Assembly (NCBI GenBank): GCA_017469115.1
Contig: JAFUGY010000100.1
Location: 1-33,799 of the forward strand
Length of the DNA: 33,799 nt
Source of the DNA: Oscillospiraceae bacterium
GTDB lineage: Bacteria; Bacillota; Clostridia; Oscillospirales; Oscillospiraceae
Direction: 5' to 3'
The notes under the pieces are model-generated. The model had not been told where the DNA came from. It saw only the letters and a program-made list of their open reading frames with translations, and did no database searches. A program made the translations under genes and the position numbers. Positions 11,449 through 26,717 of this stretch are shown one piece after another (the stretch's first letter is position 1; every line of letters begins with the position of its first letter).

Positions 11449-14400
11449 TTATTTCCTTGTTCTCGCTACGCGGTGGGCAATGTTTTGCCACAGGTGGGGG
11501 AGAATGCCGAAGTCTTTTCTCAGTGATTGTGGCAGAGAAGGGATCCGGTCATATAAAATCTCCCAGTATTCATAGCGGTCATTGCCGAAATCCAGAATTT
11601 CAATGGTATGTGTGCGGCTTTGGCTGCGGCGGGCCTGCTGCACGCCCGTGACCACTCCGCTCACCTGTGCCCGGTGGCCGTTGTTGCCGAGCACGTTCAC
11701 GCTCACATGGTCCCCGATGCCGGGTGAAACGCCTTCATCCAGAAACACCGTCATGCTGTGTTCACTGAGCTGTGTGGTGATCCCGGCGGAAGAGCCTGCA
11801 CTGCCGTAGAGCACGTCAACGGTAACAGGGATGAAGTCGTTCACTTTTACGGGTTCAGTGTCATCGTCCCGCCCATCCACCAGGAAAATGGATAGAATCA
11901 GATAATACAGATTTCGAATCAGCCAGAACAGCAGAATCAGCAGGCTGATCACTTGCACTTTGTCGAGAATAAGAATAACACGTATGATGCCAATCACTGA
12001 CAGCAATGCCAGAATCAGGAAGGGCAGCATGGAGCGAATATCGGCGCTTTGTTTTTCTGCCTTCCGTGTTTTGTCCGTCACTTTGAAAGCGGAAAGATGA
12101 ATCCCCAGCGATTCTTTGATGATCGGGATCAGCAGATGGGGCATTACGCTCGTTTCATAGATGCCACTCCACTTGTGGGAGATGGTCCGCTTGCTGCAGA
12201 GCATCAGGCTTATATCCTGCATGATATACATCGGCAGCCAGAACACCAGCAGTTCCAGCCAGTTGCATTTGAAAACCGGTAGGGCAAATACGGCAAAGAG
12301 CAGCGGCGAGAGAAGATAGATCAGGTTTTTAATCGGAGAGTACCAGTAGATCACAGAGCTCCAGTAGCTGATTTTCTGATCGAGGCTGAGGTTTTTCCTC
12401 CTCCATATTTTCAGCTGTTTCGCGGTGGCAATCACACCCCGGCCCCATCTGGTGCGCTGCTGGATATGCTCTTTGTAGGTGTGGGGTGTCTGCCCACTGG
12501 CGAGAGGAACCGGCAGCGCCAAACTGACATAGCCATGTGACTCGATCAGCAGACCGGTTGCAAAGTCTTCCGTGATGGATTCGGTGTAAAACCCGCCGAC
12601 GTCCTCCAGTGCTTTCCTGGCGATCACGGTGTTCGATCCGCCGTAAATCACGCTGTTGGTAGAGGTTTTGGCTGGTTCTATGGTGCGATAGAAAAAGTCC
12701 TGCTCATTTGGAGCACGCTTCTCGGAATAGAGCGCATGTTGAAAGACATCCGGATCATAGAAGCACTGCGGCGTCTGCAGCAGGCCGAGGGGCATGCGCC
12801 TGTCCTCCGGCAGTTTTTTGTTCCGCTCTTCCGCGTCCACAAAGTAGGGGATGGTTTTCAGCAAAAAGTCACTCCTGGGGATCATGTCGGCATCCAGCGT
12901 GACGATATACGGCGCTTTTGTGAGAGACAGAGCGTGGTTCAGGTTTCCGGCTTTAGCCCCTTTGTTGTCAGGGCGGTCAAAATAGCCTACGCCCATCTCC
13001 TCTGCAAGCGAACGCATTTCGCTGCGGCGATTGTCGTCACAAACCCAGATATGCACCTTTTTGGGGTCGGGATACTTCATATGCGCACAGCCGTTTATGG
13101 TTCTGCGCAGCAGGTCGGTGGGCTCATTGTAGGTGGCAATGAATACATCCACGTCAGGAAATGCATCCTCTGCAATCTCGGGCAGGGGATATTTTTTCAG
13201 CCCGAACAGATTCCGGAAGAGAACCAGTGACTCGGCAAACCCCAGGATCTCAACAGCCAGCAGCAATAAGTTCGCGGCAATGGGAAGAACCCCAAACCCT
13301 TTTGGAATGGAATAGCGGACACGCCAGCAGAGATAAATCAGCGTACAGAATATGCTCAGCATCAGCGCGGACGAAGCCAGCACGCGTTCCTTTGTCAAGT
13401 GTTCTTTCCCGCTTCCGCCTTCACTGCGGAGGAGCTCATCATAAGTGCGTTTCTTCTTTTTCGAAGTGCCGGATAGAATTCCGGCAGCTGCGGTAAATAA
13501 CAGGATGGCAAAAATGCCGATCCCTGCGAAAACAGGCCAGGAACGCATGGCGCTTGTGCCCCGCTCTCCCAAAGCGGAGGAGAGGAAGGACCAGATTTGG
13601 GAAAGGGTCCCTTTTTCCAGCGTAGGTGCCGGATACGGAATGCGATTCGGATCTTCACCGGATATCAGGGCTTTTACCCAGCGGCCGCTGACGGTGAGGT
13701 CGGCATCGCGGATCGGGCTCTCCGGCTCAAACCCGGGGCGGAACATTGCCGAAGATTCATTCTTGTCGGAGAGGCTCCAGACAGCATAGCTGATGCCGTT
13801 CCGATTGAGATAATCAAACCATTTGGCAGCCATGGCAAAATTGAGGTCTCCGTCACCGCTGTCTTCGCTGATCCCGCATTCGCTGATAAATACCGGCAAT
13901 CCGCTGGTAATCGCGGCCTCCAGCTCTCCCAGCAATCCTTCGCCATGGGTGGCAGCATAAAAATGCAGCACCGCCATCACGTTGTCATAGGGGATCGGCC
14001 GCAGAGTTGCACTGCCGAGATTTCGGTCAAATTCCGGCGTGCCGACCAGAATAACGGATTCCGGAATCTGCTTCCTTATGACAGGGATCACCTCATCACA
14101 ATAAGTAAGAATATCTGACCAGCCTGTATCTCCGTTGGGCTCGTTGCATATTTCGAACAATAAGTTCGGGACGTCCGTATATTCCGAAGCGATCTGCTCA
14201 AAAAACTGCTTGGCTTCTTTCGCATGTATGTTGGGGTTGCCGTCTTCCAGAATATGCCAGTCGACCAGGACGTACATGTCAGCAGAGATTGCTGCATCGA
14301 TGCCCTTTCGCAGCAGAGCAAGGCTTTCTTCCGCGTAACCGCCGCAATATTGGGAGGTATATATGGCAAGGCGGATGAGATTCCCATCCCATTCGGTAGA

Positions 14401-14661
14401 AACGCGCTGGAAAAGTGTTTCATTGATAAAATCCGGGAACCAGGTAAGCCCGTGCGTGCTAACACCGTGCAAAACCACTGCCTGTCCGGCTTCATCCACC
14501 AGTTTTGTCCCATCCACATGGAGCCTTCCGTTCACAGAAGGGCGGGCTATAAGCGCTTTTTCTGCCTGTGCCGGTTCACTCTGCGCAGATGCTTCGCCGC
14601 AGGCTGCCGCAGCAGACAGAAGCAGCAGAAGGCACAGAAGAATAGAGATCATTTTTTTCAT
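11449..14661 (-). CDS. GH5 glucanase fused to cellulose-synthase-like GT2 glycosyltransferase
   Basis: A 1070-residue protein. Residues 1-27 are a signal peptide, possibly lipoprotein-like (the residues before Cys21 are not a good lipobox). Residues about 45-335 form an extracellular GH5 domain: acid/base Glu174 in FEICNEPNG, nucleophile Glu261 in PVFISECG. Membrane segments lie near 376-396, 428-447 and 457-480. A GT2 catalytic domain at about 500-760 has VDVFIATYNEP, DAD (590-592), TED (697-699) and QQRTRWGRG, the BcsA signature set for processive beta-glucan synthesis. Further membrane segments reach about 935, then a beta-rich PilZ-like tail in which the RxxxR and DxSxxG c-di-GMP motifs are not recognisable. 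The protein probably makes, exports and trims an exopolysaccharide; which glucan is unknown. It lies 41 bp downstream of the AI-2E permease gene; GAGGTG precedes the start. Confidence 0.9.
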   Translation of the reverse strand: MKKMISILLCLLLLLSAAAACGEASAQSEPAQAEKALIARPSVNGRLHVDGTKLVDEAGQAVVLHGVSTHGLTWFPDFINETLFQRVSTEWDGNLIRLAIYTSQYCGGYAEESLALLRKGIDAAISADMYVLVDWHILEDGNPNIHAKEAKQFFEQIASEYTDVPNLLFEICNEPNGDTGWSDILTYCDEVIPVIRKQIPESVILVGTPEFDRNLGSATLRPIPYDNVMAVLHFYAATHGEGLLGELEAAITSGLPVFISECGISEDSGDGDLNFAMAAKWFDYLNRNGISYAVWSLSDKNESSAMFRPGFEPESPIRDADLTVSGRWVKALISGEDPNRIPYPAPTLEKGTLSQIWSFLSSALGERGTSAMRSWPVFAGIGIFAILLFTAAAGILSGTSKKKKRTYDELLRSEGGSGKEHLTKERVLASSALMLSIFCTLIYLCWRVRYSIPKGFGVLPIAANLLLLAVEILGFAESLVLFRNLFGLKKYPLPEIAEDAFPDVDVFIATYNEPTDLLRRTINGCAHMKYPDPKKVHIWVCDDNRRSEMRSLAEEMGVGYFDRPDNKGAKAGNLNHALSLTKAPYIVTLDADMIPRSDFLLKTIPYFVDAEERNKKLPEDRRMPLGLLQTPQCFYDPDVFQHALYSEKRAPNEQDFFYRTIEPAKTSTNSVIYGGSNTVIARKALEDVGGFYTESITEDFATGLLIESHGYVSLALPVPLASGQTPHTYKEHIQQRTRWGRGVIATAKQLKIWRRKNLSLDQKISYWSSVIYWYSPIKNLIYLLSPLLFAVFALPVFKCNWLELLVFWLPMYIMQDISLMLCSKRTISHKWSGIYETSVMPHLLIPIIKESLGIHLSAFKVTDKTRKAEKQSADIRSMLPFLILALLSVIGIIRVILILDKVQVISLLILLFWLIRNLYYLILSIFLVDGRDDDTEPVKVNDFIPVTVDVLYGSAGSSAGITTQLSEHSMTVFLDEGVSPGIGDHVSVNVLGNNGHRAQVSGVVTGVQQARRSQSRTHTIEILDFGNDRYEYWEILYDRIPSLPQSLRKDFGILPHLWQNIAHRVARTRK

Positions 14662-14702: not shown

Positions 14703-15818
14703 TCAGTTGGCTTTCTTTCGTTTCTCCTGCCCGGGGATAAAGTAATCATTATACAGAAAGCTCAGGATTGCTGCAGCAGGGATGGCAAGCAGAATTCCCA
14801 CAATGCCGGCAAGGTTTCCCAGCACAATGCTCATAACCAGAATCAGCAGACCGGATACACCAAGCGAATTGGAAAAAAGCTTCGGCTTGAGAATGTAACC
14901 GTCGAAAAACTGCAAAACACAGGTAAAAATGATAAAGAACAGCGCCTGTTTTGGGTTTACCAGCAACAGAATGAAGGCTCCGAAAACACCGCCGATGATT
15001 GGCCCAAAGTTGGGGATCAGGTTTGTAACCGCTACGATGACGGATATCAGCCCGATATAAGGCATCCGGCAAATCAGCATGAAAACCGCATTGACGGTGC
15101 CGACAATCAATGCATCCAGAATGCTCTGCCCGAGAAAACTCATGAGGATGGTGTCGCACCGCAGAGAGAAGTCCATAATCGCTTCGTGTGCTTCCTGCGT
15201 TGTCATCAGCCGCAGTAATCGCCAGAAGCCGCTCATGACTCTTGTCTTATCCATCAGGATGTAAATCACAAGGATCACCGCGATGACAACGGTTAAAATA
15301 TTTTTGCCGGAGTTTGCAGCCACATTCAGGATTTTACCGGCATTATCCCGGATAAAACCGGAGATGGAGGACAAAGCGTTCTCCGAAAGCGTTGTGAGCT
15401 GATCAACGCTGACGAACTTCTCAATGATGCTGCCCTTAATTAAATTGAGCAGAGAAATGGAGTAGGATTCAATATTTTGCGAAAACAGCGAAACGCTCTC
15501 GATAATCTGAGGAATCACCATGCCGATCAGCAGCACCACAATCAGTAACGCTGAGAGCAGAGCAAAAATGACGGAGACATTCCAGCGTGTTTTGCTGGCC
15601 TTCAGTTTCCGGAATGGCAGGTAGTAAAAAAACTTTGCCAGAGGGTTGAGAATATATGCCAGTACAATTGCCAGAAAAATGGCTTTGAAGTTTCCGAGAA
15701 ACTGCTGCACTGCGCTCCAAATCGGGCTCAGATGCGTCAAAACAACATAGAGTGTGACCCCAATGCAGGCAATCACGGCACCGTTATACCATTTTTTTTC
15801 GGATAATTTCTGCTTCAT
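14703..15818 (-). CDS. AI-2E (PerM/YdiK) family permease
   Basis: A 371-residue protein with about seven to eight membrane segments. The C-terminal PxxIGLISVIVAVTNLIPNF and GPIIGGVFGAFI region is diagnostic for the family. Members export small molecules or act as ion antiporters; the quorum-sensing name is historical and does not show AI-2 transport here. AAGGCGGTGAG precedes ATG. It is the first gene of a two-gene operon with the GH5-GT2 fusion and might move a precursor or ion needed for polysaccharide synthesis (inference). Confidence 0.92.
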   Translation of the reverse strand: MKQKLSEKKWYNGAVIACIGVTLYVVLTHLSPIWSAVQQFLGNFKAIFLAIVLAYILNPLAKFFYYLPFRKLKASKTRWNVSVIFALLSALLIVVLLIGMVIPQIIESVSLFSQNIESYSISLLNLIKGSIIEKFVSVDQLTTLSENALSSISGFIRDNAGKILNVAANSGKNILTVVIAVILVIYILMDKTRVMSGFWRLLRLMTTQEAHEAIMDFSLRCDTILMSFLGQSILDALIVGTVNAVFMLICRMPYIGLISVIVAVTNLIPNFGPIIGGVFGAFILLLVNPKQALFFIIFTCVLQFFDGYILKPKLFSNSLGVSGLLILVMSIVLGNLAGIVGILLAIPAAAILSFLYNDYFIPGQEKRKKAN

Positions 15819-16012: not shown

Positions 16013-16429
16013 ATGAAGAATGAAATATTCAGGGAGAAAAGCCTGGAGAAACTGTCGTCCCCGGAGGAATTGAATGAATATCTGCATGTCACCAACCCGG
16101 CTATCTGGACGGTTCTTGCCGCAATCATTCTTCTGCTTGCAGGGCTTCTGATTTGGAGCAACTTCACATCGATCGAAAGCAGAATACCGGCAACGGCAGT
16201 TGCAGAAAAAGGCGTCCTGACGATCACTATTGACGATCAAGAAAACGCAAAAAAGATCAATGCCGGAATGCAGGTAAGTGCCGGAGGCGTTGATACGAAA
16301 ATACTCTCCGTTTCTACCGGAAAGAATGGGCAGGTTACAGCGCGGGCTTCTGCAAATTTGCCGGATGGGATATATGATGCAACGATCAGCTATCAGAGTA
16401 CCCGGATTCTGCACCTGCTGTTTAACTGA
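16013..16429 (+). CDS. Short HlyD-like membrane-fusion subunit of NHLM-type exporter
   Basis: A 138-residue protein with AAGGAG upstream of ATG 16013. Residues about 15-27 (EELNEYLHVTNPA) and the following single membrane segment (WTVLAAIILLLAGLLIW) match the N-terminus of NHLM bacteriocin-system secretion proteins. The outside part is only about 85 residues, with an AVAEKGVLTI strand start, and lacks the long coiled coil and most of the barrel of normal HlyD proteins, which are usually at least twice this length. It is the first gene of the export operon, 17 bp before the C39 ABC exporter. It may be a minimal adaptor or a reduced form. Confidence 0.7.
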   Translation: MKNEIFREKSLEKLSSPEELNEYLHVTNPAIWTVLAAIILLLAGLLIWSNFTSIESRIPATAVAEKGVLTITIDDQENAKKINAGMQVSAGGVDTKILSVSTGKNGQVTARASANLPDGIYDATISYQSTRILHLLFN

Positions 16430-16446
16430 CGGGAGGAATGCCTGCA

Positions 16447-18621
16447 GTGAAGAAAACAGTTCAGCCCGTTACAAAGGGAATTGCAAAAGTGCCGGTTATC
16501 ATGCAGATGGAAGCGCTCGAATGCGGAGCTGCCTGCCTGACGATGGTGCTGGCCTATTATCAAAAGTGGATACCGTTGGAGCAGGTTCGGGTCGATTGCG
16601 GCGTTTCACGGGATGGGTCCAATGCACTGAACGTTCTGAAAGCAGCCCGGAGTTATGGGCTTGAGGCTTCCGGCTACCGGATGGAGCCGGAGATGCTGAG
16701 AGAAGAAGGAAGTTTCCCGTGTGTTGTCCATTGGAATTTCAATCACTTTGTGGTTCTATGCGGCTTTAAAGGAAATCATGCCTATTTGAATGATCCGGCT
16801 CGCGGGAATGTCAAAATTACCATTGAGGAATTTGATCGCTCTTTCACCGGGGTTTGCCTCATGTTTTCACCGTCGGAAGCCTTTGTGCCGTCAGGGAAGC
16901 GGAAAAGCACGCTTGCCTTTGCACGAAAACGCCTGACGGGAGCGGGAGCAGCCGTCGTCTTTGTAATGCTGACTACGGTGATCGGCTATCTTTTCGGACT
17001 CATTAACCCGGTGTTTTCCCGTTTCTTTATGGATTGGCTGCTCGGAGGGCAGAATCAGGAGATGCTCTTGCCGTTTTTGGCTTTGCTTGCTGCGGTAGGG
17101 GGATTGCAGATTCTGGTGAGTGCAATCCAGGCAGTGTATTCCCTGAAAATAAACGGAAAAATGGCAGTGATCGGAAGCAGCACCTTTATGTGGAAGGTTC
17201 TGCATCTGCCGATGTCGTTCTTCTCTCAACGCATGGCGGGAGACATACAGATGCGGCAGGAGACGAATGCTGTGATAGCAGCCACGCTGGTCAACACGAT
17301 AGCTCCTTTGCTGCTCAATGCAGTGATGATGGTTTTTTACCTTGTTGTGATGGTGCGTTACAGCGTGGTGCTGACGTTGGTTGGGGTAACTACAATTATT
17401 ATAAATGCCTTTATGGGCAGGCTCATTTCGGAAAAGCGCATGAACATTACCCGTGTGCAGATGCGCGATTCCGGAAAACTGGCTTCCGCCACAGTCTCCG
17501 GTGTACAGATGGTGGAAACCATTAAAGCCAGCGGAGCGGAAAACGGTTTCTTTGCCAAATGGGCAGGATATCAGGCATCTGTCAGCACCCAGGCAGTGAA
17601 GTTTTCAAGGCTTAATGCCTATCTCGGGATGATCCCGATGTTTTTCTCGGCAGTTGCCAACTATACCGTTCTGGCCCTTGGTGTGTTCCTCACAATGCAG
17701 GGCAGGTTTACCCTTGGAATGATTCTTTCCTTTCAGGCATTTTTATCTTCTTTTCTGAATCCTGCCATGACGTTGATTTCAGCCGGGCAGACCATTCAGG
17801 AAATGCGCACCCAGATGGAACGTGTGGAAGATGTCATGCAGGTGCCCGATGATATGCCGGAAAATCCATTGCCTGCAACGAGAGAAGAAGATTACAGAAA
17901 GCTTTCCGGCGAAATTGAACTGAAGCATGTCACGTTTGGGTATTCCCCACTGGATAAGCCGCTGATTGAAGATTTTTCCATGAAGGTGAAGCCCGGATCC
18001 CGCGTCGCTTTCGCAGGGATGTCGGGCTCGGGAAAAAGCTCCCTTGCAAAGTTGATTTCTGGGCTGTATCAGCCTTGGAGCGGAGAGATCCTTTTTGACG
18101 GAAAGCCCATCCGTGAGATTGACCGCAGTGTCTTTACGGGATCTCTCGCAGTAGTGGATCAGGACATCATTCTCTTTGAAGGAACCATTGCCGATAACAT
18201 TAAAATGTGGGACAGTTCCATAGAAGATTTTGAGATGATCCTTGCAGCGCGGGACGCACAGATCCACGATGATATCGTGCAGCGTGAAGGCGGCTATGAG
18301 GGAAAGCTGACGGAAGGCGGAAAAGACCTCTCCGGCGGCCAACGGCAACGGTTGGAAATCGCCCGTGTGCTGGCCCAGGATCCGTCGATAATTATTATGG
18401 ATGAAGCGACAAGCGCGCTGGATGCCAAGACGGAATATGAGCTTGTGAAAGCTGTGAAAGAACGCGGAATTACCTGCATTGTGATTGCGCACAGGCTTTC
18501 CACCATTCGAGACTGTGATGAAATTATTGTGCTCGACCATGGCAAGGTGGTGGAGCGGGGAACCCATGAAGAGCTTTATGCAAAAGGCGGAACTTACGCA
18601 GAGCTCATCACGAGCGATTGA
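16447..18621 (+). CDS. C39-peptidase ABC exporter (NHLM ABC1 type)
   Basis: A 724-residue inner-membrane exporter. An N-terminal C39 peptidase domain has Cys26 (LECGAACL), His100 (NFNHFVV) and Asp116 (LNDPARG), so it should cut double-glycine leaders. Membrane segments at about 160-450 are followed by an ATPase with Walker A GMSGSGKSSLAK, signature LSGGQRQRLEIAR, Walker B IIIMDEATSALD and IAHRLS. GTG 16447 is preferred over ATG 16438, because the GGGAGG site is too close to the latter. It exports and processes peptides, the obvious local substrate being the LysM microprotein at 24267. It overlaps the region before the second exporter gene, with 14 bp between stop and next start. Confidence 0.93.
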   Translation: MKKTVQPVTKGIAKVPVIMQMEALECGAACLTMVLAYYQKWIPLEQVRVDCGVSRDGSNALNVLKAARSYGLEASGYRMEPEMLREEGSFPCVVHWNFNHFVVLCGFKGNHAYLNDPARGNVKITIEEFDRSFTGVCLMFSPSEAFVPSGKRKSTLAFARKRLTGAGAAVVFVMLTTVIGYLFGLINPVFSRFFMDWLLGGQNQEMLLPFLALLAAVGGLQILVSAIQAVYSLKINGKMAVIGSSTFMWKVLHLPMSFFSQRMAGDIQMRQETNAVIAATLVNTIAPLLLNAVMMVFYLVVMVRYSVVLTLVGVTTIIINAFMGRLISEKRMNITRVQMRDSGKLASATVSGVQMVETIKASGAENGFFAKWAGYQASVSTQAVKFSRLNAYLGMIPMFFSAVANYTVLALGVFLTMQGRFTLGMILSFQAFLSSFLNPAMTLISAGQTIQEMRTQMERVEDVMQVPDDMPENPLPATREEDYRKLSGEIELKHVTFGYSPLDKPLIEDFSMKVKPGSRVAFAGMSGSGKSSLAKLISGLYQPWSGEILFDGKPIREIDRSVFTGSLAVVDQDIILFEGTIADNIKMWDSSIEDFEMILAARDAQIHDDIVQREGGYEGKLTEGGKDLSGGQRQRLEIARVLAQDPSIIIMDEATSALDAKTEYELVKAVKERGITCIVIAHRLSTIRDCDEIIVLDHGKVVERGTHEELYAKGGTYAELITSD

Positions 18622-18635
18622 GGGGGAGGCGAGAC

Positions 18636-20837
18636 ATGTTCAACTGGTTTGACGAACAGATCCGGCAGAGAAAACAGCATGATCAGGATCTGTTTGAAGA
18701 CTCGATGCTTCGAATGGCCTCGTCTGTTATCGGCGCTCGAAATGCAGGGAAAGCTGCGGATGAGAGAATCGTTACACGGGATGCCATTGATGACATTCTG
18801 AAGTATTATCACCTGAAAGCAGCAGAAATCCCGGATTCTATCAAGAATCCGGAAGAACAACTGGATTTTGCTTTTCGCCCGCACGGAATTATGTACCGGA
18901 CGGTAGAATTGCGTGAGGGATGGCAGAAAGATGCATTCGGCCCGATGCTGGCCCGCAGAAAGGAAGACGGGATGCCGGTTGCGTTGATCCCGAATCCTGT
19001 CCGCGGATACCGGATGAAGGACGCTTCCGGGAAAAACATAACAGTTTCCGGAAAGCATGCCGAAGAACTGCAGGGAAGTGCACTATGCTTTTATCGCCCA
19101 CTACCGCTGAAGGCAATCGGCATTCCGGATCTGATGCTTTATCTGAAAGATTGCATGAACACGGGAGACGTTGCGCTGCTTGTAGTTCTGACACTTCTGA
19201 TTGTCATGATCGGTCTGCTGGTGACGCGGTTGATGAAGATGATGACGGGTTTTGTGCTCTCCTATGGGAATGCGGCAATCCTATGGGGGACGGCCGGATT
19301 CCTGTTGTGCACGGCTGTTTCGTCACAATTGCTTTCTGCTGCACATGATCTGGCAATGGCACGGATTGAAACCAAAACCTCACTTGCGGTTCAAGCAGCC
19401 ATGATGCACCGGCTGCTGAGTCTGCCGGCACCTTTTTTCCGGAATTACAGTTCAGGAGAACTTTCCAGACGAAGCCAGGCAGTGAATCAGCTTTGCAGCC
19501 TGCTGCTGGGCAGTGTTTTCTCGACGGGAATCACTTCTCTGGCTTCTCTGCTGTACGTCGGGCAGATCTTCCGTTATGCGCCCGGGCTTACGAGACCTGC
19601 GCTTTGCGTCATTGCCTGTACGGTAGGGATGTCGCTGGTAACAACGTGGAGCAAAACAAAGCTCAGCAAACGGCAGATGGAATTCAGCGCCAAAGAGAAC
19701 GGGCTGAGTTACGCGTTGATTACCGGGGTGCAGAAAATCAAATTGGCAGGAGCGGAGAAACGCGCTTTTGCCAAATGGGCAGATGCCTATTCCAAAGGAG
19801 CTGAGCTGGAATATAATCCTCCGTTGTTTTTGAAAATCAATTCCTCTCTGATCACTGCAATTTCACTGATTGGGACGCTGGTGATGTATTACTGTGCAGT
19901 GAAAACACAGGTTTCCCCTTCGGAGTATCTTGCCTTTAATGCTACATACGGAATGGTGATGGGTGCTTTCACATCGCTTGCCGGAATTGCCGTTTCAGTG
20001 GCGCAGATCCGGCCGATTCTGGAGATGGCGGAGCCTATTCTGAAAGCGGAACCGGAAGTCTCGGAGGGCAGGGAGATTCTGACAAAACTCTCCGGAGGAA
20101 TCGAGCTGAACAATGTTTCGTTTCGTTATCATGACCATATGCCTTATGTGATTGACGGGATGAATCTGAAAATCAGGGCAGGGGAGTATGTCGCAATTTG
20201 CGGGAAATCAGGCGCGGGAAAAAGCAGCCTGATGCGTCTGTTGCTGGGGTTTGAAACACCGGAGCGTGGTGCTATTTATTATGACGGAAAGGATCTCACG
20301 AAAATAGATCTCCGCTCCCTCCGCAAAAAAATCGGAGCGGTGACGCAGGACGGAAGCCTTTTTCAGGGAGATATCTATTCCAACATTGTGATTTCTGCCC
20401 CGCAATTGTCGGTCGATGAAGCCTGGGAGGCTGCCGAAATAGCAGGAATTGCGGATGACATCCGCGCTATGCCGATGGGTATGAACACCGTGATCAGTGA
20501 AGGACAGGGCGGTATATCCGGCGGGCAGAAGCAACGGCTTATGATTGCAAGAGCCATTGCACCGAAACCCAAAATCCTGATGTTCGACGAGGCAACCAGT
20601 GCGCTGGATAACAAAACACAAAAACAGGTTTCGGAAGCACTGGATCAACTGAAATGTACTCGAATTGTCATCGCGCACCGACTTTCCACCATACGCCACT
20701 GCGACAGAATCCTCTACCTGGAAGACGGAAAAATCGAGGAAGACGGAACTTACGATGAGCTGATTGCAAAAAAAGGTAAATTTGCCGAACTTGTGGAGCG
20801 CCAGCGCATTGAAACCGGGGCAAATGAAAAATCATAA
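18636..20837 (+). CDS. Partner ABC exporter ATPase/permease (NHLM ABC2 type)
   Basis: A 733-residue protein with a soluble N-terminal region of about 160 residues that shows no C39 catalytic residues. Membrane segments at about 165-450 follow, then an ATPase with Walker A GKSGAGKSSLMR, signature ISGGQKQRLMIAR, Walker B ILMFDEATSALD and IAHRLS. This is the layout of the second ABC protein of NHLM bacteriocin systems, thought to pair with the peptidase-bearing one. GGGGGAGG precedes ATG 18636; an earlier TTG in the same frame overlaps the ABC1 stop and is less likely. Confidence 0.9.
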   Translation: MFNWFDEQIRQRKQHDQDLFEDSMLRMASSVIGARNAGKAADERIVTRDAIDDILKYYHLKAAEIPDSIKNPEEQLDFAFRPHGIMYRTVELREGWQKDAFGPMLARRKEDGMPVALIPNPVRGYRMKDASGKNITVSGKHAEELQGSALCFYRPLPLKAIGIPDLMLYLKDCMNTGDVALLVVLTLLIVMIGLLVTRLMKMMTGFVLSYGNAAILWGTAGFLLCTAVSSQLLSAAHDLAMARIETKTSLAVQAAMMHRLLSLPAPFFRNYSSGELSRRSQAVNQLCSLLLGSVFSTGITSLASLLYVGQIFRYAPGLTRPALCVIACTVGMSLVTTWSKTKLSKRQMEFSAKENGLSYALITGVQKIKLAGAEKRAFAKWADAYSKGAELEYNPPLFLKINSSLITAISLIGTLVMYYCAVKTQVSPSEYLAFNATYGMVMGAFTSLAGIAVSVAQIRPILEMAEPILKAEPEVSEGREILTKLSGGIELNNVSFRYHDHMPYVIDGMNLKIRAGEYVAICGKSGAGKSSLMRLLLGFETPERGAIYYDGKDLTKIDLRSLRKKIGAVTQDGSLFQGDIYSNIVISAPQLSVDEAWEAAEIAGIADDIRAMPMGMNTVISEGQGGISGGQKQRLMIARAIAPKPKILMFDEATSALDNKTQKQVSEALDQLKCTRIVIAHRLSTIRHCDRILYLEDGKIEEDGTYDELIAKKGKFAELVERQRIETGANEKS

Positions 20838-20864
20838 AGATCATATAATAAGGAGAGAAGTAAC

Positions 20865-21374
20865 ATGGCACATTCACTGATTGACAAAGCATTTTATGAT
20901 GCGATTCTCCATTTTGAAGAAAATGAAGAAGCTCAGAACTACTACTATTCCATTATGAATCAGGAAGTGGAGCGAAACGGCAGGAAGGATACGGTGCGAA
21001 ACCAGATCCTCAGGGCGTATGCAATGCTGTTTTGTGATGACATCGGAGCAGAACCCGGGCAGATTGCCGGACCGGATGAAGTGGAAGCCACAGCCGACCG
21101 CCTTCACACGGGAACGATGGGGTTCGATCCAAGACACTGGTATCGGATGCAGCATCATTTTCCTGTGATTGATGAAGATAATTATGATCGTTTCGCAGCA
21201 CTTGTGATTGCAGATCTCAATGCCGGTCCTCTCCGGGAGGCAGCGGTAAACGGGGGAGATATGCTGCTGGTCGGCGCTGTTGATCCGTTACATATGACGA
21301 GAGAAGAACGGGAGAAACAGGTCGTCAGAACAGTTTCTTTGCATGATCTTGCCAATGGAGGAGAGACAAAATGA
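20865..21374 (+). CDS. Unknown 169-residue protein in export operon
   Basis: I do not recognise this family. It starts at ATG 20865 after AAGGAG. It is acidic and soluble, with no signal peptide, membrane segment or double-glycine motif near the start. The N-terminal half is predicted helical (DAILHFEENEEAQNYYYSIM). The middle has a distinctive GFDPRHWYRMQHHFP stretch rich in aromatic and histidine residues. The C-terminus ends SLHDLANGG plus four residues. The stop overlaps the next start by 4 bp. Position between exporter and regulator suggests a chaperone, immunity or regulatory role for the exported peptide; none is shown by sequence. Confidence 0.8.
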   Translation: MAHSLIDKAFYDAILHFEENEEAQNYYYSIMNQEVERNGRKDTVRNQILRAYAMLFCDDIGAEPGQIAGPDEVEATADRLHTGTMGFDPRHWYRMQHHFPVIDEDNYDRFAALVIADLNAGPLREAAVNGGDMLLVGAVDPLHMTREEREKQVVRTVSLHDLANGGETK

Positions 21375-22180
21375 CAATATTCGCTGTGGAAGAAAAGAAA
21401 GACGCCTTGCAAGCCCTGGAGAAGCTCCTCCGTGAACAGGCGGGTGATGCAGAGCTTTTCTGTTTCGACAGCAGCCTTGCAGCGCTTGCTGCTGCCAGAA
21501 ACCGTGAGGTGGATCTTGCTGTTCTCAGCGTTGAGATGACAGAGCTTGGCGGGATGGATTTGGGGCAGTATCTCATAGAGCTGTATCCGCTGATCAACCT
21601 GATTTATCTGTCAGATTCACGGGAGAGGGGTTATGAAGCGATGAATCAGCATGCAAGCGGATACCTCCTGCGGCCAATTTCACAGGAAAAGCTTCGCCGG
21701 GAGATGGAAGACCTGCGCCATCCGGCAGTTCAAAAAAACCAAAAGCGTGTTTTTGCACAGACATTTGGAAATTTTGACCTGTTTGTAGACGGCAATCCGG
21801 TAGCCTTCAAGTATTCCAAGACGAAAGAAATCGTTGCCCTGCTTGTGAACAACCGGGGAGCACAGACCACCAATGGAGAAATCATAGCGACACTGTGGGA
21901 AGATGACGGAGATCCGGAAAAGAAGGCCTCCTATCTATCCAATCTCCGGCAGGATCTGCAGAATACATTCACGAGATTGAAGCTGAACGGGATTTTGCTG
22001 AAACAGCGCGGCAGCCTCGCCATAGCAAAAGATAAAATAGAGTGCGATCTTTATGACTGGCTGGAAAAGAAACTGGATTCGAAATATCAGTATCTCGGAG
22101 ACTATATGAACCAATACAGCTGGCCGGAAACCACACATGCCGAAATTGACGAAATCAGTTATTCTCTCTATGATGATTGA
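21371..22180 (+). CDS. Pseudo-receiver / SARP-type winged-helix regulator
   Basis: A 269-residue protein. Residues 1-115 look like a response-regulator receiver, but key sites are changed: the phospho-acceptor position reads VLSVEM (family VLDxxM), and the conserved lysine is arginine in YLLRPIS. Residues about 130-230 are an OmpR/SARP-type winged helix (FGNFDLFVDG, TKEIVALLVNNRG, EIIATLWEDD, LSNLRQDLQNTF). It probably binds DNA without phosphorylation by a histidine kinase and controls the export genes or the nearby secreted genes. It ends the operon; no hairpin terminator was seen after it. Confidence 0.82.
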   Translation: MTIFAVEEKKDALQALEKLLREQAGDAELFCFDSSLAALAAARNREVDLAVLSVEMTELGGMDLGQYLIELYPLINLIYLSDSRERGYEAMNQHASGYLLRPISQEKLRREMEDLRHPAVQKNQKRVFAQTFGNFDLFVDGNPVAFKYSKTKEIVALLVNNRGAQTTNGEIIATLWEDDGDPEKKASYLSNLRQDLQNTFTRLKLNGILLKQRGSLAIAKDKIECDLYDWLEKKLDSKYQYLGDYMNQYSWPETTHAEIDEISYSLYDD

Positions 22181-22241
22181 AAGATATAAATAGTTACAGA
22201 AAATTTACAATTTCGTTCAACATTTAAGAATCATTTTGTAG

Positions 22242-22247
22242 TATAAT
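22242..22247 (+). promoter_or_regulatory. Possible -10 box of the secreted-protein gene
   Basis: TATAAT 40 bp before the start codon. No good -35 box is found at normal spacing, which would fit activator control, for example by the regulator encoded just upstream (inference). Confidence 0.35.
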
Positions 22248-22286
22248 CTTATTTGTAAAAAGATGGAAAAAATGGGAGGTGCTTTT

Positions 22287-24158
22287 ATGAAGAAAACAAT
22301 CAGCACGATTCTGACCCTCGCGATGATTCTTGCGCTTGCCGCTTTTGGCGGGCAGGGCGCTCTTGCAGCTGACCTGACAGCGGACCAGGCAGATGCGCAG
22401 CTCAACACCATTTTTGCAACAATGGGATCGTTCAAACAAACAGGGACGACGGCAGCCTGGCGCTATGCTGTGACGGATCTTGACCATAACGGGCAGCTTG
22501 AACTTGTTGCAGCCGCGCTGCATCCGGTGGATCGGTCCAACAACCTGAAAGTCTGGGAACTCAGCGCTGACAACAGCAGCTTCCAGGAATGCAAGACGGT
22601 TGTACCGGAAGGCGAATCTTTCCCGGATATTCTGACCAACAGTGCAGATACCTTTTTTGATGCTGGTTCGAATACCTGGTCCTATGTCTTCCTGGATCAC
22701 ATTGTGCTCTCAGACAAAGAAGTATATGACGTGAATTGCTCTGTGACGTTGAAGGATCAGGCTGTCAGCTTTACACAGCATGCTATTTCTCACACGGAAA
22801 TGGTGAACGGGGTGATGACAACATCCTACATGGATAACAACGGCATCACGATTTCACCGGATGTTTATAACAATTCCGGTGTAAATGCCCATGCAGGAGC
22901 GGTGAAGAGCAGCACCAACTTCGGATGGTTTGCCTTTGAGAATGCAACTGAGCTCTCCGTTTTGAAAGATAGCTATGCTGTTTTCACGGGTGAAAAGGAG
23001 CCGGACAAAACCACGTCTCCCAAACCGGGCGTGACGCCGACGGTGGCTGTACCGGTTCAGACGCAGGCACCGCAGGCAACCACAGCGCCTGTCGCTACCG
23101 CAGCGCCGCAGCAGCAACAGAGAGTCACCTATCTGACGGTTACGAAGAACCCGACCAACGAGAACCGCAAAACAGGTGACACAGCCCTGTTCGTAGCCAA
23201 TGCCACGGCGTTTGACAGCCTGACATGGACGTTCGTAGCTCCCAACGGCGGAGAATATTCTGTGCAGAACTTCCGGAATGTCTTTCCTGGGTCCACCGTT
23301 TCGGGTGAATACTCTACGACTCTGGCGGTCGGCAAACTGCAGGCAGACATGAGCGGATGGGGCGCTTACTGCACCTTCTATTATAACGGACAGACTGCAA
23401 AAACCAGCACTGCCTACATCAACATCACAAACAAAGGACAGCCGGCTTCCACGCAGGATGTTTACGGCTCTGCCAGCGGCAAGGCCTATCATGATACCGC
23501 ATATACTGTATATATCGTTTTACAGAACGGTGTGGACGCACATGTAAACGGCAGTATCTGCAATCTCGTTTACGGAACATTGGTGGATGGCAGCAGCTGC
23601 ACGGTCTATTATGTGGCTCATCCCAATGGCACATATGATATCTATTCGGTAGATATTTACGGCTCATACAGCCCGTATACACCGTCAACACCTACTCCGC
23701 AGTCAACCTATGGCTCCATGAGCGGCAAAGCTTATTCCGGCGGAGGCGGATATGCCATTAACCTTTCCAACGGCACTCAGGTTTATGTGGATGCTTATCT
23801 GTGCAATGTTTCCGGCTATTTCTACGAAGGGGCTGACTGCACGGTTTACTATGTTGCCTATTCCACCGGTGGCTATGATATCTACTCCGTTGATATTTAC
23901 GGCCAGTCTGGGCCGGCAGGCGGCGGCTGGGCAGGCAGCAACTATTATGAGAATGAATATGGCGGAACTGTCAACATCAGCGGCGGTACCTACCAGGATG
24001 AATACGGTAGTTTTACACCGGCTCACCCGGATCCCTATGAAGAGGATCTTAGCGGCGGCGGCTGGGCAGGCAGCTCCACTGTCACCTGTCCCAACTGCGG
24101 CAGAGAAGTCCAGTCTGCATATGAATATTGCCCGTATTGCAATTATCATCTCTGGTGA
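22287..24158 (+). CDS. Large secreted multidomain protein with C-terminal zinc ribbon
   Basis: A 623-residue protein; GGAGGT precedes ATG 22287. Signal peptide at residues 1-27 (cleavage near GALA-ADL). The N-terminal domain (about 30-230) contains YAVTDLDHNGQLEL, a calcium-loop-like or VCBS-like segment. A Thr/Pro/Gln-rich linker follows (about 235-285). Next is an Ig-like domain (VTKNPTNENRKTGDTALF to GWGAYCTFYYNGQTA), then two tandem copies of a domain of about 65 residues ending YDIYSVDIYG. A Gly-rich tail comes next, and a CPNC...CPYC zinc ribbon in the last 23 residues. A zinc ribbon on an exported protein is odd. It is paralogous to the gene at 30586-32229. The role is unknown; cell-surface binding is plausible. 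Confidence 0.85.
   Translation: MKKTISTILTLAMILALAAFGGQGALAADLTADQADAQLNTIFATMGSFKQTGTTAAWRYAVTDLDHNGQLELVAAALHPVDRSNNLKVWELSADNSSFQECKTVVPEGESFPDILTNSADTFFDAGSNTWSYVFLDHIVLSDKEVYDVNCSVTLKDQAVSFTQHAISHTEMVNGVMTTSYMDNNGITISPDVYNNSGVNAHAGAVKSSTNFGWFAFENATELSVLKDSYAVFTGEKEPDKTTSPKPGVTPTVAVPVQTQAPQATTAPVATAAPQQQQRVTYLTVTKNPTNENRKTGDTALFVANATAFDSLTWTFVAPNGGEYSVQNFRNVFPGSTVSGEYSTTLAVGKLQADMSGWGAYCTFYYNGQTAKTSTAYINITNKGQPASTQDVYGSASGKAYHDTAYTVYIVLQNGVDAHVNGSICNLVYGTLVDGSSCTVYYVAHPNGTYDIYSVDIYGSYSPYTPSTPTPQSTYGSMSGKAYSGGGGYAINLSNGTQVYVDAYLCNVSGYFYEGADCTVYYVAYSTGGYDIYSVDIYGQSGPAGGGWAGSNYYENEYGGTVNISGGTYQDEYGSFTPAHPDPYEEDLSGGGWAGSSTVTCPNCGREVQSAYEYCPYCNYHLW
23454..23904 (+). repeat. Tandem coding repeat (two copies of a domain of about 65 residues)
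   Basis: The copies start at about 23454 and 23701. Both run from a YGSxSGKAY segment, through a conserved cysteine followed by Asn (ICNLVYG / LCNVSGY), to CTVYYVA and YDIYSVDIYG. The paralogue at 30586 has only one copy, so copy number has changed since the genes diverged. Confidence 0.8.
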
Positions 24159-24200
24159 TGATTCGGGAATCACTTTGTGACAGTAGTGTGACATTTCGCA

Positions 24201-24209
24201 TGTTATACT
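24201..24209 (+). promoter_or_regulatory. Extended -10 promoter of the LysM microprotein gene
   Basis: TGTTATACT (TGn plus TATACT at 24204-24209), 57 bp before the start codon. The extended -10 element compensates for the weak -35 region and shows that the small gene has its own transcript. Confidence 0.5.
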
Positions 24210-24266
24210 GATGCTGCAAAGAAGGAAAACTCTATTTGTAAATCTATTTTCAAGAAAGGAAAAATC

Positions 24267-24473
24267 ATGGATAAGGAAAAAGCAATGTTGAACGATGAGG
24301 AACTCGGCAGCGTACAGGGCGGAACCCAGCTCCCCTATATCATCAAGGGCGGCGATACCCTCGGTGCACTTGCAAAGAAGTATGGCTGCACGGTAGAACA
24401 GATCTGCCAGTGGAACGGCATTAAAAATGCCGACCAGATCTCTGTCGGGCAGAAGCTGGTTATCAAGTTCTGA
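24267..24473 (+). CDS. Double-glycine-leader LysM microprotein
   Basis: A 68-residue protein after AAAGGA. Residues 1-19 are a textbook double-glycine leader: Leu8 (-12), Glu12 (-8), Leu13 (-7), Val16 (-4), Gly18-Gly19 (MLNDEELGSVQGG). Residues 20-68 are almost exactly one LysM domain: YIIKGGDTLGALAKKYGC, then EQICQWNGIKNADQISVGQ and KLVIKF. LysM binds N-acetylglucosamine in peptidoglycan or chitin. There is no Sec signal and no other domain. The likely route is cleavage after Gly19 and export by the C39 exporter encoded 6 kb upstream, giving a basic 49-residue wall-binding protein with two cysteines (41 and 47). It is monocistronic, with its own promoter and a strong terminator. It could be a bacteriocin-like agent, a wall-bound signal or a decoy. 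Confidence 0.92.
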   Translation: MDKEKAMLNDEELGSVQGGTQLPYIIKGGDTLGALAKKYGCTVEQICQWNGIKNADQISVGQKLVIKF

Positions 24474-24578: not shown

Positions 24579-26717
24579 TCAGTTTTGAATGGCGCGCAGG
24601 ATATAACCGCATTCCGGGCAAATTGACGTCTCTCCGGACAAGTTTTCCATCTGGTGGATCTTCCGAATTTCATCCAGCGGATACAGGTATGCCTTGATCG
24701 GCAGATTATCATAGGCCATGTAAGAGCAGTCGCCGTGGCTTCCAAAGGTATCAATTGCAGCTGTCCAATCGATCCAGTTTTTATGATTGAAGCTGATCAT
24801 GCTTTCTCCGGGGTTCACAACAGCGCGGCAATACCGTCTGAGTTGCCCTACAGCAGCATCCTGATGACGAGCTTTAAATACTTCGAGAGCTGCCTCGCCA
24901 AGGCTGCTGGTATTTGTAAGCGCATATCTCGTCCCGTCTGCTGTCGGAACCCTCTCCAGAATGACAATGCCGATCCGGGAACCGGAGGGTAGAGACAATT
25001 TCTCTTCAAGCTCAATACGATGATAACCGGCGAAGAGAAATTCCTGCGTTGTGCTCTCCAGCAGTCTGCCTTCCGTTGGTTGTAAAGCATCTTCCGGCAA
25101 GAGATAGACGGAGACGGTGACAGAGGTGTTGAGATCCCCGGTCATGGCGGAGATATACTGCAGAACGCTATCTTCTTCCACCTTAAAGATGTTTGCAGCG
25201 TAGACCGGCTGCTCGAACAGTGTGGAACTGATAATGGAAGCTGGCATGTTGTCATAATCGAGGAGGCTCAGATAATCCATCTCCCTGTTCTCGTCATCTA
25301 CCACATATTCAAAGGTTTCAATCCCGCCAAGAGACTGGTCGTAATAGGAAATCCAGAAATACCCGTCTTTTCCCCAATCCGTCCCCCAACTGTTCTTGAC
25401 GATCCACGCACCGTCTGCCGGTGGCTGATACCCCTCGCGAAAAGCGGAAGCGGGGAAACTGTCATCCCAGCCAACAACAGTCACAGCATGATTGGATTGA
25501 ACATGTTCATATGTATATTGGGCATAGATTTCTGAATTTTCACCCGAGAAATTAAGATAGGGAATATGTGCAGCATCTTCCTCTTCCTGGGCGATCAGCT
25601 TCTCATACTCATCACCGAAGTATCTGGACTTCAGGACTTGAATCATTTGATCATGATCAAGATTCAGATCCGCATAAGGGTTTTCGTCCAGGTTATTTAG
25701 CCTCAAAGCAATTCCCATAAACCGCTGCAGATCTGAATCAGACAAGGTGTCAGGAGAAAGAATTCCGGCACGGAGATCAACAAAGTCAGAGAGTTCTTCC
25801 TTGGTCACCCTGTCTGTATCCCCATACCTGCTCAACAGGCGGGCCCGGACTGCATCCGGTTCCGATGGCATGGAAAGGTCTGCTGTGAAGCTGATTCCGA
25901 CTGCCCTGCCTTTCAGCAGTTCACTCTTGATTGCTTCGGTACCTTCCGGGCGGTAACAATAGTTTCCGCTTTCATCGGTACTTACCGGGGCAGGCAGCAC
26001 GTTGGCGTTCTTCAGTTCAAAGCTCTGCAGATAACGCTGTTCCTCCGGGAGGCTCCAGTCGCCGTCACTGTTCAGATGACCCTCGCTGTCGGCATACGGA
26101 ACCAGCGATTCTTTCACAACACCGATGCCGGAGGCCAGGCTGGATGCGGCGAAGAAGTAGTTTCCACCAAAATTATATGTTGTCGTCTCAGAATTCTCAG
26201 CCGGATAGGCACCTTCTCCTGACTGACTGATATCGTAGGGATAAGCACCGTCCGGATAATCTTCCGCACGCGGAAGTGCTGTAGCGGTGAACCAGGCAAG
26301 GTGCTTCTCGGAGAGATCCATCTCTTCTCCGGTCTGCTTAAGATATTCTGCTGCTGTCATTCCAAGGGAACTCAGAATGCTGGTTTCACTCGATGCCATC
26401 GTGGCGAAACTCCAGCAGGTTCCCCATGGGCTTTGGCTTTTTACAGAAGTGACGACACCGCGGTTTCGAAGGTCAAACTTCTCCGGAAATGTGTCAGCAA
26501 GGGGCTTCCACGTCAGGGCAGAGTAAATGTCATCGACGTCTTCTCCGGACTTCATCAAAACAGCAGCGGGCTTTGCCAACTCGCTTCCCAGATAGTCTAG
26601 GGCAAGCTGCTCTTCCGCTGAAAGAGCGTCACTTCCGCCTGCTTCTGCAAAAGCACAGGGCAGCAGGGAAGAGAGCAGCGCAACAGCAAGTAAAAAAGAG
26701 ACGGTTTTTCTTCTCAT
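24579..26717 (-). CDS. Secreted papain-family (C1) cysteine protease
   Basis: A 712-residue protein. Signal peptide at residues 1-25 (ending AFAEA), then a short propeptide. The C1 catalytic set is complete: Gln95 and Cys101 in KSQSPWGTCWSFA, His410 in SNHAVTVVGWDD, Asn442 in WIVKNSWGTDWG. The roughly 300 residues between Cys and His hold a large insertion compared with papain, including an acidic helical stretch. After about residue 480 comes a beta-rich domain as in other bacterial secreted C1 proteases with a lectin-like module. The tail carries a lone CPECG knuckle, half of a zinc ribbon. It converges on the LysM gene and has its own promoter. It could process surface proteins or host substrates; the target is unknown. 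Confidence 0.92.
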   Translation of the reverse strand: MRRKTVSFLLAVALLSSLLPCAFAEAGGSDALSAEEQLALDYLGSELAKPAAVLMKSGEDVDDIYSALTWKPLADTFPEKFDLRNRGVVTSVKSQSPWGTCWSFATMASSETSILSSLGMTAAEYLKQTGEEMDLSEKHLAWFTATALPRAEDYPDGAYPYDISQSGEGAYPAENSETTTYNFGGNYFFAASSLASGIGVVKESLVPYADSEGHLNSDGDWSLPEEQRYLQSFELKNANVLPAPVSTDESGNYCYRPEGTEAIKSELLKGRAVGISFTADLSMPSEPDAVRARLLSRYGDTDRVTKEELSDFVDLRAGILSPDTLSDSDLQRFMGIALRLNNLDENPYADLNLDHDQMIQVLKSRYFGDEYEKLIAQEEEDAAHIPYLNFSGENSEIYAQYTYEHVQSNHAVTVVGWDDSFPASAFREGYQPPADGAWIVKNSWGTDWGKDGYFWISYYDQSLGGIETFEYVVDDENREMDYLSLLDYDNMPASIISSTLFEQPVYAANIFKVEEDSVLQYISAMTGDLNTSVTVSVYLLPEDALQPTEGRLLESTTQEFLFAGYHRIELEEKLSLPSGSRIGIVILERVPTADGTRYALTNTSSLGEAALEVFKARHQDAAVGQLRRYCRAVVNPGESMISFNHKNWIDWTAAIDTFGSHGDCSYMAYDNLPIKAYLYPLDEIRKIHQMENLSGETSICPECGYILRAIQN

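What the first reader, a model, noticed from the sequence alone, without database searches (positions are those of the whole stretch)
16013..24473. LysM microprotein with double-glycine leader, next to an NHLM-type C39 exporter
Seen: residues 1-19 of the 68-residue gene fit the double-glycine leader rule position by position (Leu -12, Glu -8, Leu -7, Val -4, Gly-Gly), and the rest is one intact LysM domain. Known: C39 peptidase domains cut such leaders, and the exporter here has its Cys/His/Asp set. Inference: the cell exports a bare 49-residue peptidoglycan-binding domain by a bacteriocin route instead of Sec. This would be a secretion system for wall-binding microproteins, perhaps to mark, shield or signal at self or neighbour cell walls. 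I know of no described system of this kind.
Basis: partly seen in the sequence, partly recalled or inferred. Interest (0 to 1): 0.88.

Follow-up and report, generated by a model that had tools for sequence, protein, structure and literature searches.

The report
Exported wall-binding microproteins, bacteriocin-style exporter
A group of uncultured gut bacteria appears to use a bacteriocin-type export pump to put tiny, enzyme-free cell-wall-gripping proteins outside the cell, which would be a new use for that pump, though what they do there is untested.

Summary
Window 24267-24473 (+) encodes 68 residues: a 19-residue double-glycine leader and one LysM domain (Pfam E 3.6e-16). It ends a co-directional cluster with an NHLM/NHLP exporter whose C39 domain is 79% identical to LahT147, a biochemically characterised GG-leader protease.

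The pattern is not a one-off. In a sample of 61 genomes of the genus, GG-LysM genes were listed in 32 of 36 genomes with the exporter and 1 of 25 without. A leader-free LysM search of 26 genomes found 44 short LysM frames: 43 match through the leader and the other starts at base 3 of its contig. The same loci encode further GG-leader wall binders: other LysM classes and two-repeat CW_7 proteins that keep the Arg/Gln pair implicated in muropeptide binding.

I conclude that this is a dedicated export system for bare peptidoglycan-binding microproteins. A coat on the producer's own wall is my best guess. The closest precedent is MAM of Faecalibacterium, a GG-leader envelope protein. Cleavage, export and function are untested. 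No description of the system appeared in the listings of ten searches of open-licence papers.

The parts
24267..24323 (+). double-glycine leader, residues 1-19 of the LysM microprotein
   Evidence: L-12, E-8, L-7, V-4, G-2 G-1; GG in all 50 members of A2 and A3, which were chosen as GG-leader genes
24324..24470 (+). mature part, 49 residues, one LysM domain, no other domain; stop codon 24471-24473
   Evidence: PF01476 3.6e-16; PDB LysM relatives (Ecp6 4b8v, LytE 8i2e, an autolysin 2mkx)
16013..16429 (+). 138-aa HlyD stub: N-terminal part of TIGR03794 only
   Evidence: 33.5 bits, model positions 1-59 of 421; 34 homologues found, window included, 138-158 aa with starts picked by script; 24 of them aligned
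16438..18621 (+). C39 peptidase-permease-ATPase, NHLM/NHLP ABC1
   Evidence: TIGR03796 937.6 bits; C39 domain 114 of 145 identical to LahT147 (6mpz)
18636..20837 (+). partner permease-ATPase, NHLM/NHLP ABC2, no C39 match
   Evidence: TIGR03797 710.8 bits; no Peptidase_C39
20865..21374 (+). conserved protein P0005, 169 aa, no family found; present with P0006 in the same 18 loci
   Evidence: no family; 18 members, 63-83% identical to this one
21371..22180 (+). response regulator (P0006)
   Evidence: Response_reg 5.8e-11; overlaps P0005 by 4 bases
22287..24158 (+). Sec-type secreted repeat protein (P0007; signal peptide read by eye) directly upstream of the LysM gene
   Evidence: a P0007 relative within 1 kb of class A LysM in 24 of 30 places, upstream on the same strand in 23; lipobox pattern in 10 of 27 aligned members, neither window copy among them

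Best explanation
The 68-residue gene makes a precursor whose GG leader docks on the C39 domain of the NHLM-type exporter (ABC1 with ABC2). C39 cuts after Gly19 and the exporter releases the 49-residue LysM domain outside, where it binds peptidoglycan glycan without any enzyme. It is one of a set: the same genome has a second GG-LysM gene and one GG-CW_7 gene on other contigs, and relatives have up to seven listed GG-LysM genes per genome, many with CW_7 genes too. My best reading of purpose is a non-enzymatic coat on the producer's own wall that occupies binding sites and so stabilises or shields it, with the Sec-secreted P0007 as a surface partner and P0005/P0006 as regulators. Shown by sequence: leader, domains, co-occurrence, partial linkage, conserved catalytic and ligand residues. 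Inferred from biochemistry of relatives: cleavage and export. Inferred only: the coat function and the roles of P0005-P0007.
For: Leader fits the LahT rule at the key positions (PMC6363468 passages). C39 79% identical to LahT147 with Q/C/H/D kept. Leader in 114 of 115 listed short LysM frames and 0 of 35 listed long ones; leader-free control 43 of 44 short frames. 17 of 17 aligned CW_7 members keep Arg and Gln 15 residues apart in both repeats, the spacing of the Cpl-7 Arg271/Gln286 pair (PMC5705596 passages). Of 60 fetched loci, 24 hold a DUF218 protein and 11 a D-Ala-D-Ala dipeptidase relative, one of the 11 weak, which fits wall biology. Two loci of another genus (g84) carry exporter, GG-LysM and GG-CW_7. 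MAM is a GG-leader envelope protein in Faecalibacterium.
Against: No cleavage, export or binding was measured. Only 41 of 114 GG-LysM and 21 of 41 listed CW_7 genes lie within 15 kb of an exporter gene, so many cargoes are unlinked; fragmented drafts add to that. Three exporter-positive genomes have neither cargo (G433, G439, G444), and G439 has LanM genes by its exporter, so the exporter family is not specific to wall binders. One genome counted as negative, G418, has a C39-bearing fragment below the cut-off (416 bits) and no GG-LysM. The window's contig lacks the DUF218 and dipeptidase genes seen in relatives. Nothing here distinguishes binding to self walls from binding to neighbours' walls.
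Confidence: 0.7

Rival explanations
1. A bacteriocin-like antagonist: the LysM and CW_7 microproteins bind walls of competitors and disturb their growth, and the adjacent P0007 (with a lipobox in some relatives) protects the producer.
For: Exporter family known for bacteriocins and RiPPs (PMC2887384 passages). P0007 within 1 kb of class A LysM in 24 of 30 places, of class B in 11 of 29 and of CW_7 in 13 of 34, and a lipobox in 10 of 27 aligned members, resemble an immunity lipoprotein layout.
Against: No toxin or pore-forming part was found; residues 24-67 of 68 are LysM. LysM and CW_7 bind general peptidoglycan parts, probably the producer's too. P0007 is absent within 1 kb of 12 of 12 class C genes and has no known immunity family.
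Confidence: 0.15
2. A trans-anchor: the class A LysM microprotein non-covalently fastens P0007 to the wall, so export by two routes (GG and Sec) meets outside.
For: P0007 lies within 1 kb in 24 of 30 places, upstream on the same strand in 23, including 9 of the 11 places on pieces without an ABC1 gene. No wall-binding family was found on P0007 or its 26 aligned relatives.
Against: Classes B, C and D and CW_7 have P0007 within 1 kb in only 11 of 29, 0 of 12, 1 of 5 and 13 of 34 places. 6 of 30 class A genes have none near. No interaction evidence.
Confidence: 0.2
3. A signal: the exported peptide is sensed (P0005/P0006 or a STAS/SpoIIE switch) as a measure of wall state or density.
For: Response regulator in the cluster. 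Of 60 loci, 24 have a STAS match (two weak) and 12 a SpoIIE-protein match, some over a part only. A histidine kinase family, present beside the second LysM copy (L020), occurs in loci of 6 genomes.
Against: No kinase among the seven genes of the window cluster. A folded wall-binding domain is an unlikely diffusible signal.
Confidence: 0.07
4. A modified RiPP: the LysM or CW_7 core is chemically modified before export.
For: LahT and NHLM exporters serve lanthipeptides and TOMMs. LanM-type DUF4135 is in 5 of 61 genus genomes, four of which also carry GG-LysM.
Against: DUF4135 is not found in the window's genome, nor is YcaO. Cores are intact LysM and CW_7 domains. Other modifying enzymes were not searched for.
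Confidence: 0.04
5. Chance: the leader-like start is accidental and the LysM protein is cytoplasmic or uses another route.
For: Leader is short and the motif permissive.
Against: 86 against 2 in the reversed control, 5 of 973 long ORFs, 43 of 44 short LysM frames with the leader.
Confidence: 0.02

Closest known systems
MAM of Faecalibacterium duncaniae with its PCAT (PMC12184118; abstract, outline and passages seen)
   Same: GG leader with the -12/-8/-7/-4 pattern, PCAT, small non-enzymatic protein, envelope location in the producer, same order as I recall
   Different: MAM core is helical and reported to form a lattice, not LysM or CW_7; export there too rests on modelling and localisation
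NHLP/Nif11 RiPP export systems (TIGR03796/03797/03794; PMC2887384 passages seen)
   Same: Same ABC1 and ABC2 families over curated cut-offs, GG motif
   Different: Cargo is a wall-binding domain, no nitrile-hydratase or Nif11 leader here, HlyD protein cut down to 138 aa, no LanM or YcaO found in the genome
LahT of Lachnospiraceae C6A11 (6mpz; PMC6363468 passages seen)
   Same: C39 domain 79% identical, catalytic residues and leader rule shared
   Different: Its own cluster's cargoes are nine putative lanthipeptide precursors with Nif11-type leaders, though the protease accepts diverse peptides
Fungal LysM effectors such as Ecp6 (function recalled; sequence match to 4b8v)
   Same: Secreted enzyme-free LysM proteins that occupy or shield wall glycan
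   Different: Eukaryotic, Sec route, several LysM domains, act on plant immunity
phrog_1274, 70-aa phage lysM motif protein
   Same: Stand-alone small LysM family
   Different: Phage lysis category; its leader and surroundings were not examined

Membership tests
NHLM/NHLP export system (TIGR03794/03796/03797) | ABC1 with C39 over the TIGR03796 cut-off | tested here: met
   937.6 bits, cut-off 853.3
NHLM/NHLP export system (TIGR03794/03796/03797) | ABC2 over the TIGR03797 cut-off | tested here: met
   710.8 bits, cut-off 709.4, only just
NHLM/NHLP export system (TIGR03794/03796/03797) | HlyD-type secretion protein TIGR03794 | tested here: not met
   33.5 bits, cut-off 156.2; only model positions 1-59 of 421
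NHLM/NHLP export system (TIGR03794/03796/03797) | cargo with nitrile-hydratase-like or Nif11 leader | tested here: not met
   No such family on P0001 at E 0.1; one relative outside the genus, L027, has a weak Nif11-leader match, 18.6 bits, cut-off 32.3
GG-leader substrate of a C39 exporter | hydrophobic -12 and -7, acidic -8, V/I/L -4, GG at -2/-1 | tested here: met
GG-leader substrate of a C39 exporter | cleaved after GG and exported | not testable with these tools
   needs protein chemistry
LysM domain (PF01476) | over gathering score, whole domain | tested here: met
   59.3 bits, cut-off 20.9, positions 1-43 of 43
LysM domain (PF01476) | binds peptidoglycan or chitin glycan | not testable with these tools
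class II bacteriocin (Bacteriocin_IIc PF10439) | over gathering score | tested here: not met
   14.5 bits, cut-off 27.1, residues 7-34 only
lanthipeptide / TOMM RiPP | LanM or YcaO enzyme in the genome | tested here: not met
   no DUF4135 and no YcaO in G000; the genome is 89% complete
MAM family | MMMPAN start motif as given in the paper | tested here: not met
   sequence of P0001 read against the motif given

The most novel reading that the evidence does not exclude
A previously undescribed kind of secretion: a bacteriocin-type C39 exporter repurposed to build a non-covalent protein coat of peptidoglycan-binding microproteins of two folds (LysM, CW_7) on the producer's own wall. The set differs between genomes and so may give a species-specific armour against lysozyme, lysins or rival hydrolases that target the same sites.
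Probability: 0.4. Interest if true: 0.85.

Novelty: new variant of a known kind. Interest (0 to 1): 0.74.

Why it matters
The NCBI models for these exporters name them bacteriocin exporters. If they also place folded wall-binding domains outside the cell, such annotations in gut Firmicutes need a second look, and with MAM this suggests that some gut bacteria build part of their envelope by this route. It also offers small, easily assayed cargoes for studying how such exporters pass a domain, and natural enzyme-free LysM and CW_7 modules that might compete with lysins.

Tried and rejected
Viral contigs: no relative of P0001. Plasmids: 11 records, best identity 56%, LysM stretches in annotated autolysins and the like or in unannotated DNA. 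PADLOC: nothing for five cluster proteins. Order search with the GG-LysM profile, 345 genomes (weaker matches not listed): outside the window's genome the listed matches start at profile position 12 or later, except one at position 7 in a frame of 246 codons. Most are in frames above 190 codons; the short frames among them (51 to 154 codons) start at position 15 or later. Class search with the GG-CW_7 profile, 291 genomes: matches outside the window's genome start at position 19 or later. So in the samples searched the system looks confined to this genus and a few relatives in the family; I set aside a wide distribution. RiPP modification considered and disfavoured. Structures of P0007 and P0005 could not be predicted; P0007's profile has no PDB chain match at E 1. 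Promoter and terminator scan: 4 against 2.5 (sd 1.4) and 2 against 2.6 (sd 1.4) in shuffles, so uninformative. Genome-level P values ignore shared ancestry; treat them as description. Fetched loci were chosen because they hold an exporter or a cargo, so neighbour counts out of 60 are not a random sample.

Papers: ten searches of open-licence full text. The queries pairing LysM with a GG leader, C39 or NHLP, LysM with a peptidase ABC transporter and CW_7 with a GG leader showed no such system in the rows listed, judged by titles and abstract starts. For some searches only 20 of 83, 20 of 23 and 15 of 115 papers were listed. Passages of two listed papers that hold LysM and a GG-leader term (PMC3482391, PMC5524665) are about other matters. 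Subscription papers were not searched.

Full report
What was checked. The ORF, its leader and its LysM domain are as described. It is the last of seven co-directional genes, 16013-24473, flanked by opposite-strand ORFs at 14703-15818 and 24579-26717. The first five lie within 30 bases of each other or overlap; P0007 and the LysM gene follow after gaps of 106 and 108 bases.

The exporter. ABC1 and ABC2 pass the curated cut-offs of TIGR03796 and TIGR03797, the second narrowly; the HlyD protein is a stub and fails its model. Blast found 34 such short HlyD proteins in the loci used, the window's included, 138-158 residues with starts picked by script; 24 of them were aligned. The C39 domain is 114 of 145 residues identical to LahT147 (6mpz), with Q, C, H and D aligned. 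In the LahT paper (passages) the leader residues -4, -7 and -12 sit in a hydrophobic groove and the protease tolerates varied residues after the cut. In the PCAT1 paper (passages) the cargo in the cavity is unstructured and the leader alone gives specificity, so a small domain that folds after export is plausible.

The cargo family. The window's genome (G000, 148 contigs, 89% complete) has a second GG-LysM gene, 94% identical, at C12, and one GG-CW_7 gene at C145. Named near relatives are Oscillospiraceae genomes from yak and goat duodenum, 84% and 78% identical. In the genus I distinguish at least four LysM classes behind this kind of leader: A, 49 residues as here; B, with a WQ-YAKG-YVNYG stretch before LysM; C, ending IPQR; and D, with FWQEG-IYYR (class names are mine). 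There are also two-repeat CW_7 proteins. All 33 aligned LysM members hit PF01476 and all 17 aligned CW_7 members hit PF08230; they were chosen as GG-leader genes. Each of the 17, and the own-genome copy, keeps R-14x-Q in both repeats, which is the spacing of Arg271 and Gln286 of Cpl-7, implicated in GMDP binding (passages).

Association tests. In 61 genomes drawn from the genus, ABC1 is over cut-off in 36. Short GG-LysM genes were listed in 32 of those 36 and in 1 of the other 25 (G454); CW_7 matches of short frame in 26 of 36 and 1 of 25 (G406); either in 33 of 36 and 2 of 25. The LysM counts rest on 150 listed rows; weaker rows were not listed. Of 115 short frames (up to 210 codons, stop to stop) 114 matched from profile position 9 or earlier, that is through the leader, and the other starts at base 44 of its contig; of 35 long frames none did. 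For CW_7 I left out two rows of one genome (G417, frames of 412 codons) and kept seven one-repeat matches. One genome counted as negative, G418, has a C39-bearing fragment below the cut-off (416 bits) and no GG-LysM. Because the LysM profile contains the leader, I repeated the search with Pfam LysM alone in 26 genomes: 110 matches, 44 in short frames and 66 in long ones, with none between 134 and 254 codons. 43 of the 44 are GG-leader genes, and the last, G408:C6:3-146, lies at a contig start.

In DNA that I hold, 10 of 92 distinct short ORFs that match the LysM profile failed a relaxed leader pattern. Three come from the genus and carry GG with a -4 residue or a position outside my pattern (L074, L083, one in L100). 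Two are cut at ends of the DNA held (L088, L100). Five belong to genomes outside the genus. For CW_7, 3 of 37 failed, all outside the genus.

Linkage. 41 of 114 GG-LysM and 21 of 41 CW_7 genes lie within 15 kb of an ABC1 gene, against 1 of 35 long LysM genes. A frequent order is HlyD stub, ABC1, ABC2, LysC, P0005, P0006, LysB, P0007, LysA, CW_7, with much variation. Class A LysM has P0007 within 1 kb in 24 of 30 places, upstream on the same strand in 23, and in 9 of the 11 places on pieces without ABC1. For class B the figure is 11 of 29, C 0 of 12, D 1 of 5 and CW_7 13 of 34. P0007 is found in 18 of 39 loci with ABC1.

Limits of distribution. 11 of 400 family genomes matched P0001 at 1e-8, six of them in the genus; of the five others only G354 is in a short frame (146 codons). 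In the order sample the listed matches outside the window's genome do not look like GG-leader genes from their frames and start positions. GG-CW_7 and class B LysM with the exporter also occur in genus g84 (L169, L170). L027 (G354, genus g80) carries a class B LysM behind a longer leader with a weak Nif11-leader match, below cut-off.

Neighbours and function. Of 60 fetched loci, 24 hold a DUF218 protein (apparently membrane-bound), 24 a STAS match (two weak, 27% and 30%), 12 a match to a SpoIIE protein, some over a part only, and 11 a D-Ala-D-Ala dipeptidase relative (one weak). DUF218 proteins SanA and ElyC act in peptidoglycan and envelope biogenesis in E. coli (passages). These point to the producer's envelope. 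The window's contig has no match to the DUF218 and dipeptidase queries; its STAS match is a STAS-kinase fusion at 3320-4495, about 11.5 kb away. Of the five genus genomes with LanM-type DUF4135, four also have GG-LysM; the fifth, G439, has LanM genes by its exporter and no wall-binding cargo listed. G433 and G444 have other small GG-leader proteins. So the exporter type is general and the cargo choice is what is new.

Precedent. MAM of Faecalibacterium (PMC12184118: abstract, outline, passages) is a GG-leader protein found as the most abundant envelope protein, with PCAT export inferred by modelling. It makes an envelope role for GG cargo credible and lowers the distance of this finding from what is known. 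The paper's text does not mention LysM.

Verdict. Export of bare wall-binding domains by a C39 exporter is well supported by comparison and untested at the bench. A self-wall coat is my preferred purpose at modest confidence; antagonism, trans-anchoring of P0007 and signalling remain open.

Noticed in passing
window 11449-14661 (-): One 1070-aa ORF fuses a GH5 cellulase domain (7.7e-51) to a cellulose-synthase-like GT2 protein; the pairing looks unusual to me.
   Followed up: partly
window 30586-32229 (-): Paralogue of P0007, 56% identical over residues 2-462, with no LysM gene found beside it.
   Followed up: partly
window 21371-22180 (+): The receiver domain of P0006 appears to have Ser where its near relative L084 has Asp at the usual phosphate-accepting place (read by eye); it may not be phosphorylated.
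   Followed up: no
window 22287-24158 (+), C-terminus: A protein with a signal-peptide-like start that ends in a four-cysteine zinc-ribbon-like motif (weak, below Pfam cut-offs).
   Followed up: no
window 24267-24473 (+): Cys41 and Cys48 occur together in a number of class A LysM members and are both absent in others.
   Followed up: no
window 24579-26717 (-): Papain-family protease with a lectin-like domain and a signal-peptide-like start, convergent with the LysM gene.
   Followed up: no
L117 and L118 (G444, G433): The same exporter type with several different small GG-leader proteins, some with cysteine pairs, and no LysM or CW_7 match in these loci.
   Followed up: no
L022 3945-4226, L024 15432-15713, L029 10285-10488: A further GG-leader peptide with a DSWFV/HSWFV motif next to a DUF218 gene.
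   Followed up: partly
L103 (G439:C12): LanM genes near an NHLM exporter in a genome without listed wall-binding cargo.
   Followed up: partly
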